Source of the DNA: Clostridia bacterium
GTDB lineage: Bacteria > Bacillota > Clostridia > UMGS1883 > UMGS1540
Length of the DNA: 64,000 bases
NCBI GenBank assembly: GCA_017450025.1
Contig: JAFSYJ010000027.1
Span: 18,283-82,282, forward strand
Direction: 5' to 3'
Part shown: positions 23,329 through 36,700 of the stretch, piece by piece
Numbering within the stretch: the stretch's first letter is position 1
Layout: every line of letters begins with the position of its first letter
Notes under the pieces: generated by a model
Told to the model about the DNA's origin: nothing
Databases searched by the model: none
What the model saw: the letters and a program-made list of their open reading frames with translations, nothing else
Translations under genes and position numbers: made by a program

Positions 23329-24219
23329 ATGTTGGCATTGTATATTTTGATTATCTTGGCTATTCTTGTAATAGTTGCAAACATTAAGATCGTACCGCAG
23401 GCATATGCATTTATTATTGAACGCTTTGGTGCATATCATGTAACATGGAATGTGGGTCTGCATTTTAAAGTGCCGGTTTTGGAAAAGGTCGCAAAAAAGG
23501 TGAATCTTAAGGAACAGGTCGTTGACTTTGAACCGCAGGGCGTTATCACAAAGGATAATGTAACTATGCAGATCGATACAGTCGTATTCTTTCAGATAAC
23601 AGACCCGAAGCTTTTTGCTTACGGTGTTGAACGCCCGATGATGGCAATTGAAAACCTGACGGCGACAACTCTGCGTAATATCATAGGCGATATGGAGCTT
23701 GATGAAACGCTTACATCAAGGGATATTGTAAATACGCGTATGCGTTCTATTCTTGACGAGGCGACTGACCCGTGGGGTATTAAGATAAACCGCGTCGAGC
23801 TGAAAAATATTATTCCTCCGCGTGAGATACAGGATTCGATGGAACGCCAGATGAAGGCGGAGCGTGAACGCCGCGAGGCTATTTTAAGAGCGGAGGGTGA
23901 GAAAAAGTCCGCTATCCTGGTAGCTGAGGGCGAAAAGGAATCGGCAATTTTAAGAGCAGAAGCCGCAAGAGAGTCTGCCATAAGACAGGCAGAGGGTGAA
24001 GCTGAAGCTATAATTAAGGTTCAGACGGCTATTGCAGAGGGAATAAAGCTTGTAAACGAAGCAAACCCGAGCAAGGGTACGCTTACACTGCGCAGCTTTG
24101 AAGCACTTGAAAAGGTTTCCGAGGGCAAGGCTACGAAGCTGATTATTCCTTCGGAAATACAGAGCCTTGCAGGGCTTGCAGGAGCGCTTAAAGAAACAGT
24201 AACAGAAGATAAAAAGTAA
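23329..24219 (+). CDS. SPFH/band 7 (paraslipin-type) protein
   Basis: A 296-residue membrane-anchored protein: one N-terminal helix (~3-22, LYILIILAILVIVANI), an SPFH domain (~25-190; PQAYAFIIERFG, VDFEPQGVITKDNV) and a long Ala/Glu coiled coil (AEGEKKSAILVAEGEKESAI, ~190-250). Members oligomerise on membranes and partner with NfeD proteins. The ATG at 23329 has AAGGAG 8 bp upstream; a GTG at 23320 overlaps that site and is unlikely. Confidence 0.9.
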   Translation: MLALYILIILAILVIVANIKIVPQAYAFIIERFGAYHVTWNVGLHFKVPVLEKVAKKVNLKEQVVDFEPQGVITKDNVTMQIDTVVFFQITDPKLFAYGVERPMMAIENLTATTLRNIIGDMELDETLTSRDIVNTRMRSILDEATDPWGIKINRVELKNIIPPREIQDSMERQMKAERERREAILRAEGEKKSAILVAEGEKESAILRAEAARESAIRQAEGEAEAIIKVQTAIAEGIKLVNEANPSKGTLTLRSFEALEKVSEGKATKLIIPSEIQSLAGLAGALKETVTEDKK

Positions 24220-24228
24220 TTATACAGA

Positions 24229-24258
24229 TAACCCCCGATTTTAATAAATCGGGGGTTA
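24229..24258. terminator. Bidirectional terminator
   Basis: TAACCCCCGATTT and AATCGGGGGTTA pair across a short AT loop, between the convergent SPFH and HAD genes; T-rich on the plus side (ATATTTTGT). Confidence 0.8.
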
Positions 24259-24272
24259 ATATTTTGTATAAA

Positions 24273-25091
24273 TTACAGCAATTTAATTCTATCAATTTCT
24301 TCAAGCATTTCCGGCAAAATGCCTTGATTATTACTGCTTTTCAGTGTGATGTCCGCGGCCTTTTTAGCTGCATCTTCCGCATTTGACGGCGCAAAGCTCA
24401 AAGCAGGCGACAAAAGCATTTCAATATCGTTGTCGTTATCTCCGGCTACAATAATGTTTTTGTAATCAAGCTTCAGCAATTCACAGAATTTTGCAAGTGC
24501 AACGCCTTTTGATGTTGTTTTGTTTACAGCCTCATAAAAAATATTGTATGAGCGTATAAGCTTGTATTCGTGATAAAAATCACTTTTTTCCATAAAAGTC
24601 TTGAATTCATCGATGTTTTCAGGATAATCGGCAAAAACGATTTTGAGCCACGGTGAGGTTATATTGCGGTAATCCTCCCTTTCAACAAACAAATCCTCGT
24701 TTTGCTGATGAAGATATGTACCATAGCTTTCACGATAATAATATATGTGATGCGGAGTTATTATTTCTATTCCCATTTCGGGGAATTTTTCTTCAACAAA
24801 TGCAATAAGATTTTCAGCTTCTTTGGGAAGCGGATCTACCCATATGTATTTTCCGGTTGCCGTGTCGTAAATGGCACTGCCGTTTTGGCATATTATCGGA
24901 ATATCCGCCTTTATGCGTTCGAGATAGAAATTTGCGCCCTGAAGCGTGCGGCCCGTACAAACGGAAAAAGTTCCGCCCTCTCTGCGGAAATATTCAAGCG
25001 CGTCAAGATTTGCGCGCGGTATCTTCATATCAGTATCTATAAATGTTCCGTCTATATCACATAATAAGACAATTCCGGAGTATTTACCCAT
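24273..25091 (-). CDS. Cof-type HAD-superfamily phosphatase
   Basis: A 272-residue haloacid-dehalogenase family hydrolase. Motif I is LCDIDGTFID (nucleophile Asp in DxD), motif II SVCTGR, motif III Lys in TSKGVALAKF and motif IV AGDNDNDIEML. The C2B cap lies between motifs II and III. Such enzymes dephosphorylate small phosphorylated metabolites with overlapping specificities. It is single-gene, convergent with the SPFH gene, and lies 32 bp downstream of the S24 repressor gene on the same strand, so read-through from the repressor promoter is possible. Confidence 0.88.
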   Translation of the reverse strand: MGKYSGIVLLCDIDGTFIDTDMKIPRANLDALEYFRREGGTFSVCTGRTLQGANFYLERIKADIPIICQNGSAIYDTATGKYIWVDPLPKEAENLIAFVEEKFPEMGIEIITPHHIYYYRESYGTYLHQQNEDLFVEREDYRNITSPWLKIVFADYPENIDEFKTFMEKSDFYHEYKLIRSYNIFYEAVNKTTSKGVALAKFCELLKLDYKNIIVAGDNDNDIEMLLSPALSFAPSNAEDAAKKAADITLKSSNNQGILPEMLEEIDRIKLL

Positions 25092-25123
25092 TTTATGTTA
25101 AAGCAATCCTTTCGGTGTGTATT

Positions 25124-25825
25124 TTAATCAGCAATTTCCCGTATAAGCAGCTTGGGTATGCCGAGAATTTTAAAATTTTCTGCGTTGGCGTTTTCAATAC
25201 GGCGGACAGGGTATGCAGGATTTACGGACACTATCCTTATCCATTCTTCGCCTTCTTTGAACTCAATTTTTTTAAGCGAGGCGTGATCATCGCTATCACA
25301 CAGTACAACGCCTGTCTGACCGCTGTAATCCACGGAGGACTTTCGCAGCACAAGCACCTTGTCGCCGTCTTTATAATCCGGATACATACTGTCACCCTTA
25401 ACGCGCATAACAAAAAAATCGTCGCGGCTGTGACCGCTCAAAGCAGAAAACGGAACATCGACCGTTTCGCCCGTTTGGGTGTGAACATTAAAATCAGACA
25501 CATCATTCAAAACAGAATATGTTGCATAGCCGCCTTTTAAGCTTGTGTCATTATATGAGGAATTCAAATAACCGCTGTCATTGGAAGGCTCAGAAATAGG
25601 GAGGTTGTTCTGAAAAAGTCCGGAATCGTTCCACCCCATAAGATATGCCGGAGTAACATCAAGAGCGTTTGCAATTTTAGATATTTTATCGAGCGGAATA
25701 TTAGTCACAATCCCGTTTTCATATTTAAAAACGGTTTGAATGGCACAGCCTACTCTTTTAGCGACATCTGACTGTGTCAGCCCTAATTTTTCGCGTTCTT
25801 GTTTTATTCTTTCTCCAATCGTCAT
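25124..25825 (-). CDS. Phage-like XRE/S24 repressor
   Basis: A 233-residue repressor: a helix-turn-helix XRE domain (~4-58, KLGLTQSDVAKRVGCAIQTV), a Ser/Asn-rich linker, and an S24 (LexA/CI-type) peptidase domain with Ser146 in KGDSMYPDYKDGD and Lys185 or Lys186 in ASLKKIEF. No clear Ala-Gly or Cys-Gly cleavage site is seen before the Ser, so RecA-triggered self-cleavage is uncertain. ATG at 25825 has GGAGGT ~7 bp upstream; an ATG at 25855 lies before that site. It faces the peptidase gene at 26111 across five palindromes and overlapping promoters, and very probably controls both directions. Confidence 0.88.
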   Translation of the reverse strand: MTIGERIKQEREKLGLTQSDVAKRVGCAIQTVFKYENGIVTNIPLDKISKIANALDVTPAYLMGWNDSGLFQNNLPISEPSNDSGYLNSSYNDTSLKGGYATYSVLNDVSDFNVHTQTGETVDVPFSALSGHSRDDFFVMRVKGDSMYPDYKDGDKVLVLRKSSVDYSGQTGVVLCDSDDHASLKKIEFKEGEEWIRIVSVNPAYPVRRIENANAENFKILGIPKLLIREIAD

Positions 25826-25845
25826 CTGCTTTACCTCCAGAAAAT

Positions 25846-25874
25846 ATGTTAACATACTAAGTTAAAAAAGTCAA
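25846..25874 (-). promoter_or_regulatory. Promoter of the S24 repressor gene
   Basis: On the minus strand TTGACT (25869-25874), 17 bp, TAACAT (25846-25851). The palindrome at 25849-25865 covers the -10 and most of the spacer, implying autorepression. Confidence 0.75.
25849..25865. promoter_or_regulatory. Operator-like palindrome 1
   Basis: TTAACATACTAAGTTAA: half-sites TTAACATA and TAAGTTAA around one central base; one mismatch from the consensus TTAACTTA-N-TAAGTTAA. Overlaps the repressor promoter. Confidence 0.65.
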
Positions 25875-25895
25875 GAAATTAAAAAAAATAAAAAA

Positions 25896-25912
25896 ATAAC
25901 TTGACAAGTCAC
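25896..25912. promoter_or_regulatory. Operator-like palindrome 2
   Basis: ATAACTTGACAAGTCAC: core ACTTG-A-CAAGT is a perfect palindrome and shares AACTT/AAGT with the other sites. It covers the -35 TTGACA of the rightward promoter. Confidence 0.5.
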
Positions 25913-25929
25913 CACAAATGTTGTATTAT
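25901..25929 (+). promoter_or_regulatory. Promoter of the zinc-peptidase/polyvalent gene
   Basis: TTGACA (25901-25906), 17 bp, TATTAT (25924-25929). The -35 lies in palindrome 2 and the expected start point in palindrome 3, so occupation of either would block it. It leaves a leader of about 175 nt. Confidence 0.75.
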
Positions 25930-25945
25930 TGACTTAAGGAGTTAA
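25929..25945. promoter_or_regulatory. Operator-like palindrome 3
   Basis: TTGACTTAAGGAGTTAA: half-sites TTGACTTA and GGAGTTAA, located at the predicted transcription start of the rightward promoter. Confidence 0.6.
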
Positions 25946-25948
25946 TAA

Positions 25949-25967
25949 TTTGTCGAAATTTGTAGAA
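25949..25967 (+). promoter_or_regulatory. Tandem Spo0A-box-like element
   Basis: TTTGTCGAA (25949-25957, exact match to the Spo0A box consensus) and TTTGTAGAA (25959-25967), 10 bp start to start. Tandem boxes one helical turn apart fit the known head-to-tail binding of Spo0A dimers. It lies just downstream of the rightward start site. The same design recurs at 63807-63825. Confidence 0.55.
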
Positions 25968-26031
25968 AAAGCTCAAAAATGAACGCATAGAAAATCTAAA
26001 TAATCATAAATCAAATTTTTTTGCAATGCGT

Positions 26032-26048
26032 TTAACTTAATAAGTTAA
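26032..26048. promoter_or_regulatory. Operator-like palindrome 4 (best match)
   Basis: TTAACTTAATAAGTTAA: perfect palindrome apart from the central base, in the leader of the peptidase gene. Confidence 0.65.
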
Positions 26049-26050
26049 TT

Positions 26051-26067
26051 TAAACTTAAAAAGTTAT
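26051..26067. promoter_or_regulatory. Operator-like palindrome 5
   Basis: TAAACTTAAAAAGTTAT: 19 bp after palindrome 4, with the AACTTA/AAGTTA core retained. Confidence 0.5.
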
Positions 26068-26110
26068 TTCAGTTGCGTCGGTTTTATGATAAAAAAGGAG
26101 ATATAATACT

Positions 26111-28369
26111 ATGATTAATTTGGCAGAAGGCAATGTTATGACAGATATTTATACTGATACGAAAGATATAATTAAAAAAGCGGAGATTGTTCATAAAAAT
26201 AGAGGCAGATATACATACAGCGGCAAAGATTTAAGTTTACAAAGGATACTGACGGGCGATGGGGAGGTTATATTCCGTAAAATAAAAGCCAGAGCGTTCC
26301 GTCGCGACAAAAAGATGAGGGCAATTAAGGAGTACAACAGAAAACGCGGAATAAAAACTGTATTTATAAGCGGTTATGCGATAAACGGCGACAGCATTGT
26401 GAGAGGGTTTGCACATAAGGGGACAGCATATATAATGTATGACCACCCTTATTATACGCCCGAACAGATAAACCATCACGAAATGGTGCATCTTAAAGCC
26501 AATGACGCCGCTTATAAGAAGTTTTACAGCAGCGTGTTTTGCAAGCTGACCACAGATGAAAAATCCAAAATTCTTATGGCGTTAAATAAAAAATACGCTC
26601 CGCAATTTATAAAAAGCTTTTTGAGAGCAAATCCCGATGCAACAAGCAGGCAGACGATTCAGGCATTAATTTTATATTTGTCAGAGGAAGCTATGGCTGA
26701 CCTGAACGGCGGAATGGATGAAATGGCAGAGCATTCCGCAAGATTTGCCGACGAAATATTGACATTCAGAGCTGCGGCTGACAGTGCCGTCAGAGATACA
26801 AATTTTACGGAAGAAAAATGTGTTATGAGCAGCGAATTAAGACTCAGCGTGGAATACAGCGGCTCACCAAATGAGCCGCAAAACAAAAAATGCGTAGCGA
26901 TTCATAATGTGTCGGCGGAAAACTTTTTGCGAATGTATAACAAAGGGTACGGCGGTATGCCGGGAATATCTGCCGCAATATTATATTACACAAGCTGTTT
27001 TACAGATTACGGAGCATTGTCGTTTGTACTTAAGCCTGACTCAATAAATCCGCAAAATCAAAATAATTTGATATTCAGCTCTGACGCGTGGTCGTCAATG
27101 TTTCCGTCTGTTGTTATGAAGCCAAATAAAAAGGCGGTCGAAAAACTTGCCAAAAGGCTTGGGGCTTCTGCGTTACAGATTATGAATAATTATTTTGAAA
27201 ACAAAAGCGAAGCGACAGCATTACAGTATTTGTCGGAAGAAAAGGCGATAAAGGAGCTTTTTATAAAAGAGAAGGGAGGACTCCGCAAAAGTGCGTTTGA
27301 AGAGCTTGACGAGTGGGACTCGGAGTTTGCAGAAGAGCTTACGCCAATGATAAAAAGGGGAGTTACTGCAGACGACATAATATACAAAGATGAGCTTACA
27401 AGTGAGTTTTTTGACAAGCTCGGTTTTGTTATTGACAGAATGGGGGAGTACGATTTTGGCAGACCGAACAAAAGGCTTTTGGCGTTTGCGCGTGACGGCA
27501 ACAAGGAAGCGCAAAATCTGTTCAGAAAGGACTGGCTTAAATATACAAAAGGTTCGGTTGAAGGGTATATCCTAAATCATCAAAGAGAGTTTAATAAATT
27601 TGTCAAAAATATTATTTCAGATGTCAGTCAGGGGGAAGTCCTTAAAGACAGGGAGGGCAATATTTATGACGACAATGTTGATAATATTCTGAAGATAATG
27701 TTTGAGATTGATAAATACCAATTTGCAAATTATGAAAGCATAGATAACCTGACAGCAAAATTGGCAAAGAAATACACCTCGCTCAATGAGCTTCGCGCCG
27801 ACACGGACAAGCTGCTGCCGTTATCAGATGACATCAGGCAGTCGGTTGCCGACAAGCTCAATAACAGGCTTTCAGGTATTATTGATAAAATAGCAACGCC
27901 TGATGAATTCGGTGACAGCATAAAGAATACAGGCAATATTTTGCTCAGGGCTATCAATGGCAACGGCGGGTATTCTGAGGAGTCCGTTATACAGAGCTTT
28001 AAGAAAGAAAACATTGAAGTAAATGAAAATACCGCAAATGAAATAATAACCCTTTTTGATAACATAAAAACCGCACCTGTGAAATTTTTTGAAGCAAAGC
28101 TTAACAGGCTTCTCAAATGGAATGAAGTCGGAGCCGCGGTTATTCCCGACAATACAGATGCGGAAGTTGCCTATGCTTTATTTGATTTGGGAATAAAAGT
28201 CGTAAAATACGAATTTGAAAACAATGACAGCCGTTTAAAAGCTGTAGAGCAATTTCCCGAAATGAGATTCAGCAGGGAAGAATATCTTAAAAATCAAACA
28301 GGAGATGAAAGTCACGCAGTAATTGCTTGCATTATTTTTTTTGACTTTTTTTTGACGGAAAACGGCTAA
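26111..28369 (+). CDS. Zinc-peptidase-like protein with phage polyvalent-protein domains
   Basis: A 752-residue protein. The N-terminal part (~75-215) carries a zincin motif HEMVH (123-127) after YTPEQINH, and a candidate third ligand in SEEAMADL (192-197). The middle (~262-335: VAIHNVSAENFLRM, GMPGISAAI, FSSDAWSSMFP) and the C-terminal segment (GAAVIPDNTDAEVAYALFDL ... EMRFSREE) resemble conserved parts of the very large polyvalent proteins of Clostridia phages and conjugative elements; this is family recall, not a search. The two outer parts are joined by ~350 helix-rich residues. No signal peptide. AAGGAG is 10 bp before ATG. Repressor-controlled and embedded between housekeeping genes. 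Substrate unknown. Confidence 0.75.
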   Translation: MINLAEGNVMTDIYTDTKDIIKKAEIVHKNRGRYTYSGKDLSLQRILTGDGEVIFRKIKARAFRRDKKMRAIKEYNRKRGIKTVFISGYAINGDSIVRGFAHKGTAYIMYDHPYYTPEQINHHEMVHLKANDAAYKKFYSSVFCKLTTDEKSKILMALNKKYAPQFIKSFLRANPDATSRQTIQALILYLSEEAMADLNGGMDEMAEHSARFADEILTFRAAADSAVRDTNFTEEKCVMSSELRLSVEYSGSPNEPQNKKCVAIHNVSAENFLRMYNKGYGGMPGISAAILYYTSCFTDYGALSFVLKPDSINPQNQNNLIFSSDAWSSMFPSVVMKPNKKAVEKLAKRLGASALQIMNNYFENKSEATALQYLSEEKAIKELFIKEKGGLRKSAFEELDEWDSEFAEELTPMIKRGVTADDIIYKDELTSEFFDKLGFVIDRMGEYDFGRPNKRLLAFARDGNKEAQNLFRKDWLKYTKGSVEGYILNHQREFNKFVKNIISDVSQGEVLKDREGNIYDDNVDNILKIMFEIDKYQFANYESIDNLTAKLAKKYTSLNELRADTDKLLPLSDDIRQSVADKLNNRLSGIIDKIATPDEFGDSIKNTGNILLRAINGNGGYSEESVIQSFKKENIEVNENTANEIITLFDNIKTAPVKFFEAKLNRLLKWNEVGAAVIPDNTDAEVAYALFDLGIKVVKYEFENNDSRLKAVEQFPEMRFSREEYLKNQTGDESHAVIACIIFFDFFLTENG

Positions 28370-28399
28370 AACAAGCCCCCTGAGAGTATCTCAGGGGGC
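28366..28399 (-). terminator. Terminator of the flavoprotein gene
   Basis: GCCCCCTGAGA and TCTCAGGGGGC form a perfect 11-bp stem (28375-28399); on the minus strand it is followed by TTGTTTTA. It could also stop plus-strand transcription from the peptidase gene. Confidence 0.8.
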
Positions 28400-28405
28400 A
28401 CCGGA

Positions 28406-29023
28406 TCATCTTATAAAGCTTGTGAACACACGCTTTTCGGTTTCGGGAAGCCCGAATTTTTCTTTTCCGAGAGCGATGGACTTGATTAAAAATGTCATAT
28501 TTCTTGCAAGTACGCGCATTATTTGCAAGCCTTCTTCATCTTGCGCAGCCTCGCCCTGCTCTCTGCCGTGTGCGCTGTTCCAATACTGGCTTGGCGCAAT
28601 AGGCATATTTGAAATGGTAAAATACTTATTAAGCCTGTCAAATGTTGCCGTTGTACCGCCGCGGCGCGCAACGCATACTGCTGCACCGACCTTCATGGTT
28701 TTATCAAAATGCGTGCTGAAAAACAAGCGGTCTAAAAAAGCTGTAACGGTGGCGTTTGGACCTGCAAAATAAACAGGGGAGCCTATAACGATACCGTCGC
28801 AGGCTTCGAACTTCGGAGCGGCTTCATTTACGGCATCTTCAAATACACATTTGCCTTGTTCAGAGCATTTTCTGCAAGCGATACAGCCGCGAATTGCTTT
28901 GTTTCCTATATGTATTGTTTCTGTTTCAACGCCGTTTTCCGCAAAAATCTTTTCCATTTCCGCAAGCGCAATAGCTGTGTTGCCGTTAGCGTTGGGACTT
29001 CCGTTTACAAGTAAAACTTTCAT
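28406..29023 (-). CDS. Iron-sulfur flavoprotein / NADPH-dependent FMN reductase family
   Basis: A 205-residue flavodoxin-fold protein. The FMN phosphate loop is NGSPNANGNTA (~6-16) and the second flavin loop SPVYFAGPNA. The compact cysteine motif GCIACRKCSEQGKC (CX2CX2CX5C, ~46-59) matches the [4Fe-4S] ligand pattern of the Isf family, which passes electrons from reduced ferredoxin to small oxidants such as O2 or peroxide in anaerobes. ATG at 29023 has GGAG 6 bp upstream. It has its own terminator and lies downstream of clpX on the same strand (50 bp gap). Confidence 0.85.
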   Translation of the reverse strand: MKVLLVNGSPNANGNTAIALAEMEKIFAENGVETETIHIGNKAIRGCIACRKCSEQGKCVFEDAVNEAAPKFEACDGIVIGSPVYFAGPNATVTAFLDRLFFSTHFDKTMKVGAAVCVARRGGTTATFDRLNKYFTISNMPIAPSQYWNSAHGREQGEAAQDEEGLQIMRVLARNMTFLIKSIALGKEKFGLPETEKRVFTSFIR

Positions 29024-29073
29024 AATAAACTCCATTCTTAAAAGATGACCGCTACCAATGGCAGCGGTGTAAT

Positions 29074-30360
29074 TTATGACGCAGAACTGCGCTTTGTCCT
29101 TTTGGCTTGCGTTAATTTAACGGCACGCTCGGAATTGCGTGCAACTTCAGGCTTCTTTTTACCGTTAACGGCGTCTTTGGTGAGCGTAACGGCTTCAACG
29201 GTTTCGTCGGAGGGAACTTCAAACATTGTATCAATAAGCGCCTCTTCCATAATCGCGCGCAAGCCGCGTGCACCTGTCTTTCTGTCAAACGCCTTTTGTG
29301 CAATCGCTTCAAGAGCGTCGTCATTGATTTTGAACTCTACATTATCATAAGCAAAAAGCTCGTGATACTGCTTTGCAAGCGCGTTTTTCGGCTGAACTAT
29401 GATACTTTTTAGTGCTTCTATATCAAGCAAATCAAGCGTTACAAGTACAGGCATTCTGCCTACAAATTCGGGTATAAGTCCAAACTTGAGAAGATCCTCG
29501 GGCTCAACCATTTTGAGAAGTTCGCTGTTTGACTTATCACGCGCGCCTGTAATATCCGCACCGAAACCGACCTGTTTTTTGCCAATGCGGTTTTTGATTA
29601 TTTTATCAAGACCGTCGAACGCTCCGCCTGCAATAAACAAAATATTAGAAGTGTCAATTTGAATAAACTCTTGATGTGGGTGCTTTCTGCCGCCCTGCGG
29701 GGGAACGGACGCAACCGTGCCTTCCAAAATCTTCAAAAGTGCCTGCTGAACGCCTTCGCCGCTGACATCGCGAGTTATAGAAGGGTTTTCACTTTTTCGC
29801 GCTATTTTATCGATTTCATCAATATATATTATACCGCGCGATGCACGGTCAATATCGTAATCAGCCGCCTGAATAAGCCGGAGAAGGATATTTTCAACAT
29901 CTTCACCTACATAGCCGGCTTCGGTAAGAGTTGTCGCATCAGCAATAGCAAACGGAACATCAAGGATTTTTGCAAGCGTTTGCGCCAAAAAGGTTTTGCC
30001 GCTTCCCGTAGGTCCCATAATCAGGATGTTGCTTTTCTGAATTTCAACGCCATCGCTCTTATAGTTAGAGTCAAGGCGCTTATAATGGTTGTAAACCGCA
30101 ACGGAAAGAGCCTTTTTTGCCTCGTCCTGCCCTATAACATAATCATCAAGAATCCGTTTGATCTCGACGGGCTTAAGCGTATTTTGTACAATTTGCGCGT
30201 GAGAAGGTTCTGCTTCTGTCTGTTCTTCTATAATTTCGGAGCATAGGCTTATGCACTCATCGCAGATATATACACCGGGACCTGCAACAAGCCTTTTTAC
30301 CTGATCCTGATTTCTGCCGCAAAAAGAGCATATAAGCTTGTCGTCATCATGCTTTGCCAT
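29074..30360 (-). CDS. clpX: ATP-dependent unfoldase ClpX
   Basis: A 428-residue AAA+ unfoldase that feeds proteins to ClpP. The N-terminal zinc finger ([14 protein letters not shown] ... YICDECI) is present, followed by Walker A GPTGSGKT, Walker [11 protein letters not shown], the pore loop GYVGED and the ClpP-docking IGF-like segment in [15 protein letters not shown]. Encoded 3 bp after clpP. Confidence 0.96.
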
Positions 30361-36247: not shown

Positions 36248-36278
36248 AAATTTGATTATATATTTAAAATAATAATTT

Positions 36279-36403: not shown

Positions 36404-36631
36404 TTAATCTCTGAAATCAAAAAGCTGCGAAGGCGGAATACTTAACGAATCGCATATATTAAAAACAACATCAAGGGAAACAGCACACTCGGCATTTTCA
36501 ATACGGTTCATGTGCGTGCGGCTTATACCTATTATTTCTGCAAACTGAATTTGAGAAAACCCATTTTTTTTACGGTAATAGGCAATATTAAGACCGAGAT
36601 TTTTATACATTTCAATATAATTTTTTTTCAA
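36404..36631 (-). CDS. Small XRE-family DNA-binding protein
   Basis: A 75-residue protein that is essentially one helix-turn-helix domain: LNIAYYRKKNGFSQIQFAEI and GISRTHMNRIENAECAVSLD, ending IPPSQLFDFRD. The start is placed at TTG 36631, with GGGAG 8 bp upstream; GTG at 36640 is an alternative but lies almost on top of the GGAGG. It is divergent from the esterase gene, whose promoter overlaps the inverted repeat TTGTAAC-N7-GTTACAA, a plausible operator for this protein. Confidence 0.85.
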   Translation of the reverse strand: MKKNYIEMYKNLGLNIAYYRKKNGFSQIQFAEIIGISRTHMNRIENAECAVSLDVVFNICDSLSIPPSQLFDFRD

Positions 36632-36700
36632 TCTTATCACTCCCCTCCTTTTTAGTTTAAGTTATTATATGAATCATCACAACAACTTATAATAACAATT

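What the first reader, a model, noticed from the sequence alone, without database searches (positions are those of the whole stretch)
25124..28369. Divergent S24 repressor and zinc-peptidase/polyvalent-protein pair: candidate undescribed switch system
Seen: a phage-type XRE/S24 repressor faces a 752-residue gene that fuses an HEMVH zincin motif (with a candidate third ligand in EEAMAD) to two segments typical of phage and conjugative-element polyvalent proteins. The pair stands alone between a HAD phosphatase and an iron-sulfur flavoprotein gene, with no capsid, portal, integrase or conjugation gene nearby. Known: in ImmR/ImmA elements a metallopeptidase cleaves the repressor. Inference: here the peptidase is itself under the repressor; if it cleaves the repressor, the circuit would be a self-reinforcing bistable switch. 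It could serve defence, element control or a differentiation event. Usually such domains sit in proteins several thousand residues long, so a compact, privately regulated version is unusual.
Basis: partly seen in the sequence, partly recalled or inferred. Interest (0 to 1): 0.85.

Follow-up and report, generated by a model that had tools for sequence, protein, structure and literature searches.

The report
Phage protease-nuclease gene with private repressor
Alone among what look like housekeeping genes, a bacterium carries one intact gene, apparently of phage origin, that joins a predicted protein-cutting domain to a predicted RNA-cutting domain; it is likely held off by its own phage-style repressor, which would release it when the cell's DNA is damaged.

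Summary
A CI-type XRE/S24 repressor faces an intact 752-residue gene. Its parts are a zincin-like domain (HEMVH, EEAMAD), a PBECR5 nuclease-like domain (Pfam, 74.9 bits, cut-off 25) and a C-terminal segment shared with large phage proteins. Between the genes lie four copies of a 17-bp palindrome (1 of 1,000 shuffles gave three, none four) on two divergent promoter-like sites. Within two mismatches, one further place in the held genome matches.

The central inference, that the zincin cuts the repressor, gains no support. The repressor keeps its own Ser-Lys self-cleavage dyad, and no repressor-like sequence was found at nine other places that carry related domains.

Host-acquired solitary polyvalent proteins are already described (Iyer 2017). 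New here is the private CI operator switch on one of them. In rabbit-gut Monoglobus, solitary genes with a related zincin show dN/dS 0.09-0.12 over the zincin, which argues against debris. Against function, about half of the conserved PBECR5 columns are lost and the C-terminus may be truncated. I read the locus as a host-kept phage effector, probably released by DNA damage. Activity, trigger and target are untested. New variant of a known kind.

The parts
25124..25825 (-). CI-type XRE/S24 repressor, 233 aa from the likely start at 25825 (ORF listed to 25855)
   Evidence: HTH_3 and Peptidase_S24; phrog_4 and others; 31%, 27% and 33% identity to the CI of Javan116, HK75 and phi575, catalytic Ser and Lys kept
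25846..25874 (-). promoter-like site for the repressor (TTGACT-17-TAACAT, TG before the -10)
   Evidence: consensus match only
25849..25865 (.). operator copy, 1 mismatch to TTAACTTA-N-TAAGTTAA, over part of the -10 and the spacer of the repressor promoter
25897..25909 (.). weaker operator-like 13-mer over the -35 of the forward promoter
   Evidence: 85% identical to the matching part of the 26032 copy
25901..25929 (+). promoter-like site towards the 752-aa gene (TTGACA-17-TATTAT, 11 of 12)
   Evidence: consensus match
25929..25945 (.). operator copy, 3 mismatches, from the last base of the -10 over the start region
26032..26048 (.). operator copy, perfect 17-bp palindrome
26051..26067 (.). 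operator copy, 3 mismatches, 19 bp start-to-start from the previous one
26111..28369 (+). compact polyvalent gene, 752 aa, AAGGAG at 26095-26100
26288..26710 (+). zincin-like metallopeptidase domain, about residues 60-200
26477..26491 (+). HEMVH, residues 123-127
   Evidence: invariant HExxH columns
26684..26701 (+). EEAMAD, residues 192-197, likely third zinc ligand
   Evidence: aligned with EEFVCD and EELMAD in relatives; on helix 179-199 of the model
26864..27358 (+). PBECR5 nuclease-like domain, residues 252-416
   Evidence: PF18814, E 1.1e-20
27653..28279 (+). C-terminal segment shared with large phage proteins, residues 515-723
   Evidence: phrog_22978; tblastn to L002, L015, L016 and L055

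Best explanation
An intact 752-residue gene joining a predicted zincin peptidase, a PBECR5 nuclease-like domain and a C-terminal segment shared with large phage proteins faces a CI/S24-type repressor across a gap with four copies of a 17-bp palindrome, and it is likely a host-kept phage effector that would be switched on when the repressor, as predicted, cuts itself after DNA damage. Inferred chain: (1) the repressor would bind the palindromes, which sit on both promoter-like sites, shutting the effector off and limiting its own level; (2) RecA filaments on single-stranded DNA would trigger self-cleavage through the conserved Ser-Lys dyad, probably at a Gly-Gly where two phage relatives have Ala-Gly; (3) the effector would be made; (4) the zincin would cut the fused chain, or host or phage proteins, freeing the nuclease part; (5) the nuclease part would cut RNA and stop growth or an incoming element. 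Shown: the domain matches, the palindrome array, the presence of the same domains in phage proteins, and no phage gene recognised by eye nearby. Inferred: every step of the action, the phage-to-host history, and repressor binding.
For: Domain content. Intact ORF with a ribosome-binding site. Palindrome array on both promoter-like sites, significant by shuffling. Within 2 mismatches the pattern has two places here and one elsewhere in the held genome (C25:8786), against two per strand for the reversed control, which points to a private regulon. S24 Ser and Lys conserved. Zincin model topology: helix 67-78, strands 82-91, 99-102 and 105-109, HExxH helix 117-129, glutamate helix 179-199, which fits the MPTase description in PMC5512222 (passage). 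The two viral models at E 0.001 or less are large phage proteins, one named EF-hand domain-containing (E 3.5e-6), one named large polyvalent (E 5.0e-4). An HEDYH zincin (by eye), PBECR5 and the C-terminal segment occur in the same order in phage contigs L015 (two adjacent ORFs) and L055. Zincin parts of solitary polyvalent genes in Monoglobus have dN/dS 0.088, 0.119 and 0.094. PMC5512222 interprets solitary polyvalents as host-acquired and possibly defensive (passage).
Against: No full-length relative, so no selection test on this gene itself. The nuclease part is diverged: 25 of 52 columns identical in three relatives are kept, and a His in their GHS motif is Phe here, so it may be inactive. 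The scissile Ala-Gly is Gly-Gly here. The 3' end abuts the flavoprotein terminator and two phage relatives continue further, so the gene may be truncated. Promoter-like sites are no more frequent than in shuffles (8 found, mean 10.0). The full-length structure model failed (pLDDT 42). No LexA was found in the 87.5%-complete genome, RecA was not searched, and DNA damage as the trigger is from knowledge of CI/LexA proteins. The pairing was not seen elsewhere.
Confidence: 0.45

Rival explanations
1. Prophage debris: deletion fused a repressor-operator region to a leftover polyvalent gene piece; the ORF is open by recent origin and does nothing useful.
For: Phage-type parts; the 3' end looks cut where two phage relatives continue; nuclease part diverged (25 of 52 conserved columns kept); full-length relatives not found; repressor pairing not seen elsewhere.
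Against: 752 codons open with a good ribosome-binding site; repressor with catalytic residues; intact palindrome array; no other phage gene recognised by eye in 64 kb; no flanking direct repeat beyond chance (best 11 bp; 82 of 200 control pairs reach 11 or more); zincin of solitary relatives under purifying selection.
Confidence: 0.28
2. One reading: the zincin cuts the S24 repressor, so that any expression reinforces itself.
Against: The repressor carries its own S24 dyad; no ImmA/IrrE family match; no repressor-like sequence at 9 places with related domains; zincins in polyvalent proteins are mainly thought to process their own chain, though host targets are also proposed (PMC5512222, passage).
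Confidence: 0.1
3. Superinfection immunity: the repressor is the useful part, silencing related incoming phages, and the polyvalent gene is a passenger.
For: CI-type repressor with its own palindrome array; 27-33% identity to three phage CI proteins.
Against: Does not explain an open 752-codon gene behind the same palindromes.
Confidence: 0.1

Closest known systems
Polyvalent proteins, context iii (host-acquired, solitary), Iyer et al. 2017
   Same: Zincin plus PBECR plus a segment of large phage proteins, no mobile-element neighbours; a defensive role was suggested there (PMC5512222, passages).
   Different: A dedicated CI/S24 repressor with an operator-like array; I read passages only and saw no such pairing there ('repressor' occurs 0 times in the main text).
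ImmR/ImmA of ICEBs1-type elements
   Same: XRE repressor next to a zinc peptidase domain (abstract starts in the listing; passages of PMC11318856).
   Different: Here the peptidase is fused to a nuclease-like domain, is divergent from the repressor and matches no ImmA/IrrE family; the repressor has its own S24 peptidase domain.
CapH/CapP and PprI/DdrO
   Same: Repressor plus zincin logic with DNA-damage derepression (PMC10904395, PMC13373217, passages).
   Different: No separate CapP-like peptidase recognised; the repressor matches capH over residues 1-69 only.
CI repressors of lambdoid and Gram-positive phages (HK75, phi575, Javan116)
   Same: HTH plus S24 architecture and catalytic residues; HK75 also has annotated operators in its divergent control region.
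   Different: Appears to control a single effector gene instead of a lytic programme.

Membership tests
Polyvalent protein (Iyer 2017) | two or more unrelated phage-conflict domains in one polypeptide | tested here: met
   PBECR5 by Pfam, zincin by relatives and model, C-terminal segment by phrog_22978
Polyvalent protein (Iyer 2017) | phage or conjugative neighbourhood, or the solitary context with the same architecture | tested here: met
   solitary in 64 kb by eye; same domain order in phage contigs L015 and L055
Zincin-like MPTase | HExxH helix after a three-stranded sheet, glutamate on a later helix | tested here: met
PBECR5 nuclease | profile score over the Pfam cut-off | tested here: met
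   74.9 bits against 25
PBECR5 nuclease | active-site His and Thr/Ser | tested here: inconclusive
   H265 kept, T328 is Ser, H297 is Phe; which His is catalytic in PBECR5 was not established
S24 self-cleaving repressor (CI/LexA type) | HTH plus S24 domain with catalytic Ser and Lys | tested here: met
S24 self-cleaving repressor (CI/LexA type) | scissile Ala-Gly (or Cys-Gly) bond (recalled) | tested here: inconclusive
   Gly-Gly aligned to Ala-Gly of HK75 and phi575; Javan116 is not clearly aligned there
S24 self-cleaving repressor (CI/LexA type) | RecA-stimulated self-cleavage | not testable with these tools
   needs an experiment
ImmR/ImmA | peptidase of the ImmA/IrrE (M78) family | tested here: not met
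   no Pfam match other than PBECR5 at E up to 1
ImmR/ImmA | peptidase gene beside the repressor and transcribed with it | tested here: not met
   genes are divergent; feature from PMC11318856, passage
Prophage or satellite | integrase, packaging or structural genes | tested here: not met
   none recognised by eye in the window
Known defence system (PADLOC) | effector matches a PADLOC model | tested here: not met
   0 families for the 752-aa protein at E up to 0.1

The most novel reading that the evidence does not exclude
A self-contained two-gene stress switch: bacteria have taken a phage's injected protease-nuclease, cut it down to one chain and placed it under a private CI repressor, so that DNA damage releases a growth-stopping or anti-phage enzyme without a prophage, an antitoxin or the LexA network.
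Probability: 0.22. Interest if true: 0.72.

Novelty: new variant of a known kind. Interest (0 to 1): 0.45.

Why it matters
It would show how phage-injected effectors can be taken over by bacteria together with a phage-type genetic switch, giving a damage-triggered effector in two genes. It also offers a small, testable example of a zincin-PBECR5 protein, a combination seen here otherwise only inside large phage-type proteins.

Tried and rejected
Full-length relatives: three searches of 5.8 billion proteins returned only the protein itself (2 members, 5 contigs): 7,996 candidates scored, capped; 2,061 candidates; 7,998, capped. These consider only proteins of 0.55 to 1.75 times the query's length (about 413-1,316 aa), so giants were out of reach. 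Plasmids: 0 of 72,556 records. Phages: 2 of 50,697 records. Viral contigs: no stretch matched the whole protein's patterns; 0 of 67 stretches confirmed for the zincin; 1 of 41 for the PBECR5 module. Six viral contigs with repressors 27-32% identical to this one were found and not examined further.

Empty-site test: SPFH, HAD, flavoprotein and clpX relatives lie on different contigs or tens of kb apart in the relatives' hit lists, and the stretches of G003 and G004 that I fetched hold no two sides of this site together, so no empty site could be read. Flanking direct repeats: best 11 bp; 82 of 200 control pairs reach 11 or more. Rfam: 0 matches at the gathering score in 24000-29500.

Print search: searches listed 20 of 37, 10 of 1,426, 12 of 70, 8 of 8,644, 2 of 2 and 8 of 63 papers; no listed title or abstract start describes an S24-repressor/polyvalent pair. 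I looked at passages of PMC5512222, PMC10904395, PMC13373217, PMC11980606, PMC11318856 and PMC9403866 only. Most subscription papers are not held.

First alignment of zincin pieces to the whole protein was misaligned and dropped.
Full report
WHAT IS THERE. The window holds a repressor ORF at 25124-25855 (-) and a 752-codon ORF at 26111-28369 (+), running away from a shared gap. The repressor's ribosome-binding site and the start of homology put its start at 25825, giving 233 aa: an XRE helix-turn-helix and an S24 peptidase domain, like phage CI (215 of 50,697 phage records match, all under 60% identity). The big protein has three parts. Residues of about 60-200 form a zincin-like domain with HEMVH (123-127) and EEAMAD (192-197). 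Residues 252-416 are PBECR5. Residues 515-723 match phrog_22978, a family with a 3,513-position profile.

THE CONTROL REGION. Between the genes, a 17-bp palindrome TTAACTTA-N-TAAGTTAA occurs four times (26032, 25849, 25929 and 26051; 0, 1, 3 and 3 mismatches), with a fifth weaker 13-mer at 25897. The rest of the window has one match within three mismatches, at 36264. The consensus was taken from these sites, so I also ran an unguided test: for any near-palindromic 17-mer in the region, how many copies (itself included) lie within three mismatches. The region gives 4; of 1,000 dinucleotide shuffles 612 gave 0, 359 gave 1, 28 gave 2 and 1 gave 3; of 664 other blocks of the window none gave 2 or more. 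The copies sit on a forward promoter-like site (TTGACA-17-TATTAT, 25901-25929) and a reverse one (25874-25846). The number of promoter-like sites in that scan (8) is no higher than in shuffles (mean 10.0), so the promoters are plausible only by place and quality. Within two mismatches the pattern occurs at two places here and one elsewhere (C25:8786) in the held genome, three per strand; the reversed control gives two per strand. The regulon is therefore probably this locus alone.

THE PROTEIN'S RELATIVES. The zincin domain was found in 4 of 391 genomes of the class, one of them this genome. A motif scan of the 84,980-species collection found 145 stretches, of which 5 encode a relative: Clostridia RGIG4103 (roe deer caecum), three uncultured Monoglobus (isolates named Lapin, that is rabbit) and an Oscillospiraceae ORF of at least 2,424 aa. 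Three of these five are the same places as the G-handle hits, judged by equal contig lengths. PBECR5 was found in 2 of 98 relatives (own included) and in 1 of 398 of the phylum (own only). PBECR5 with the same C-terminal segment occurs in an unverified phage record from human faeces (L015, there in two adjacent ORFs) and an IMG/VR contig (L055), each also with an HEDYH zincin, recognised by eye, upstream of the PBECR5, and in an open frame of 2,971 aa in G016 (L002). A protein of about 2,840 aa of Acinetobacter phage Ab9, encoded after two internal virion protein genes and an endolysin, shares the C-terminal segment only. Our gene thus looks like a compact version of a phage virion-region protein. 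L015 and L055 run on past its C-terminus, and its last codons abut the flavoprotein gene's terminator, so the C-terminus may be a truncation.

DEBRIS OR FUNCTION. No strain set was available for a selection test on the gene itself. The nearest test is on solitary relatives. In two Monoglobus species a zincin polyvalent gene lies downstream of spoVT, with hemW and lepA beyond it where the contig continues (names by eye); a third lies elsewhere. Their zincin parts have dN/dS 0.088 (176 codons, L008-L009), 0.119 (193, L008-L018) and 0.094 (183, L009-L018); the part after the zincin has 0.121 (84 codons, L008-L018), the ORF upstream 0.389 (198, L009-L018); spoVT and thrS (L008-L009) have 0 and 0.011 (my own Nei-Gojobori script). 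So this zincin clade is kept in solitary chromosomal settings, under weaker constraint than housekeeping genes. The solitary genes carry other partners: PBECR3 and LPD3 in L008; ART-PolyVal and LPD3 in L010. Against function of the nuclease part: between residues 250 and 345, 25 of 52 columns identical in three relatives are kept, with H265 kept, T328 to Ser, H297 to Phe.

THE SWITCH. The S24 Ser and Lys are conserved, and the segment aligned to Ala-Gly of HK75 and phi575 (the expected cleavage site, from knowledge of CI proteins) reads Gly-Gly. This makes self-cleavage the simplest release route, and removes the need for a zincin that cuts the repressor. No repressor-like sequence was found in 12 loci (9 distinct places) with a related zincin, PBECR5 or C-terminal segment; these are 3.6-24.7 kb long and some end inside the gene. 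One S24 protein, this one, was found in the held genome (87.5% complete), and LexA was not found there, while 38 of the 40 genomes searched (this one among the two misses) have a match. Whether the strain truly lacks LexA is open; RecA was not searched.

WHAT IS KNOWN. Iyer et al. 2017 define polyvalent proteins, PBECR domains and a solitary host-acquired context that 'might be deployed defensively', and say over 75% of these proteins have two or three domains (PMC5512222, passages). Repressor-cutting zincins triggered by single-stranded DNA are known in PprI-DdrO and CapP-CapH (PMC10904395, PMC13373217, passages). In Clostridium clostridioforme prophages, large polyvalent-type ORFs and CI/Cro or ImmR/ImmA switches are described, but the passages I saw show no direct pairing (PMC11318856). 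I found no description of a polyvalent gene under a private CI-type repressor in the listings.

VERDICT. Real, intact and apparently privately regulated; a new variant of the host-acquired polyvalent protein. The mechanism (damage-released effector) is likely but untested; the repressor-cutting loop is unsupported.

Noticed in passing
G000 (own genome): No LexA match and only one S24 protein in the held 1.3-Mb genome (87.5% complete), while 38 of 40 genomes searched have a LexA-type match (this genome and G032 do not); all five same-family genomes match, three of them below the curated cut-off.
   Followed up: partly
L008 7482-9857 and L009 7486-9008: Solitary polyvalent genes at the same place (after spoVT, named by eye) in two Monoglobus species, with a related zincin under purifying selection; one ORF in L008, split in L009 and L018.
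   Followed up: partly
L010 8815-11688: RGIG4103 solitary gene with ART-PolyVal, LPD3 and a related zincin, interrupted by a TAG, next to a gene that looks by eye like a REP-type transposase.
   Followed up: no
window 25092-25123: Only 32 bp separate the repressor's stop from the start of a co-oriented HAD phosphatase gene (named by eye), which may therefore be co-transcribed with it.
   Followed up: no
window 36404-36640: A small XRE-like regulator ORF (78 aa, by eye) in an AT-rich stretch (36-39 kb, GC 0.34-0.37).
   Followed up: no
L015 6917: The stop of the PBECR5-bearing ORF overlaps the start of a second ORF carrying the C-terminal segment, suggesting gene fission or a frameshift.
   Followed up: no
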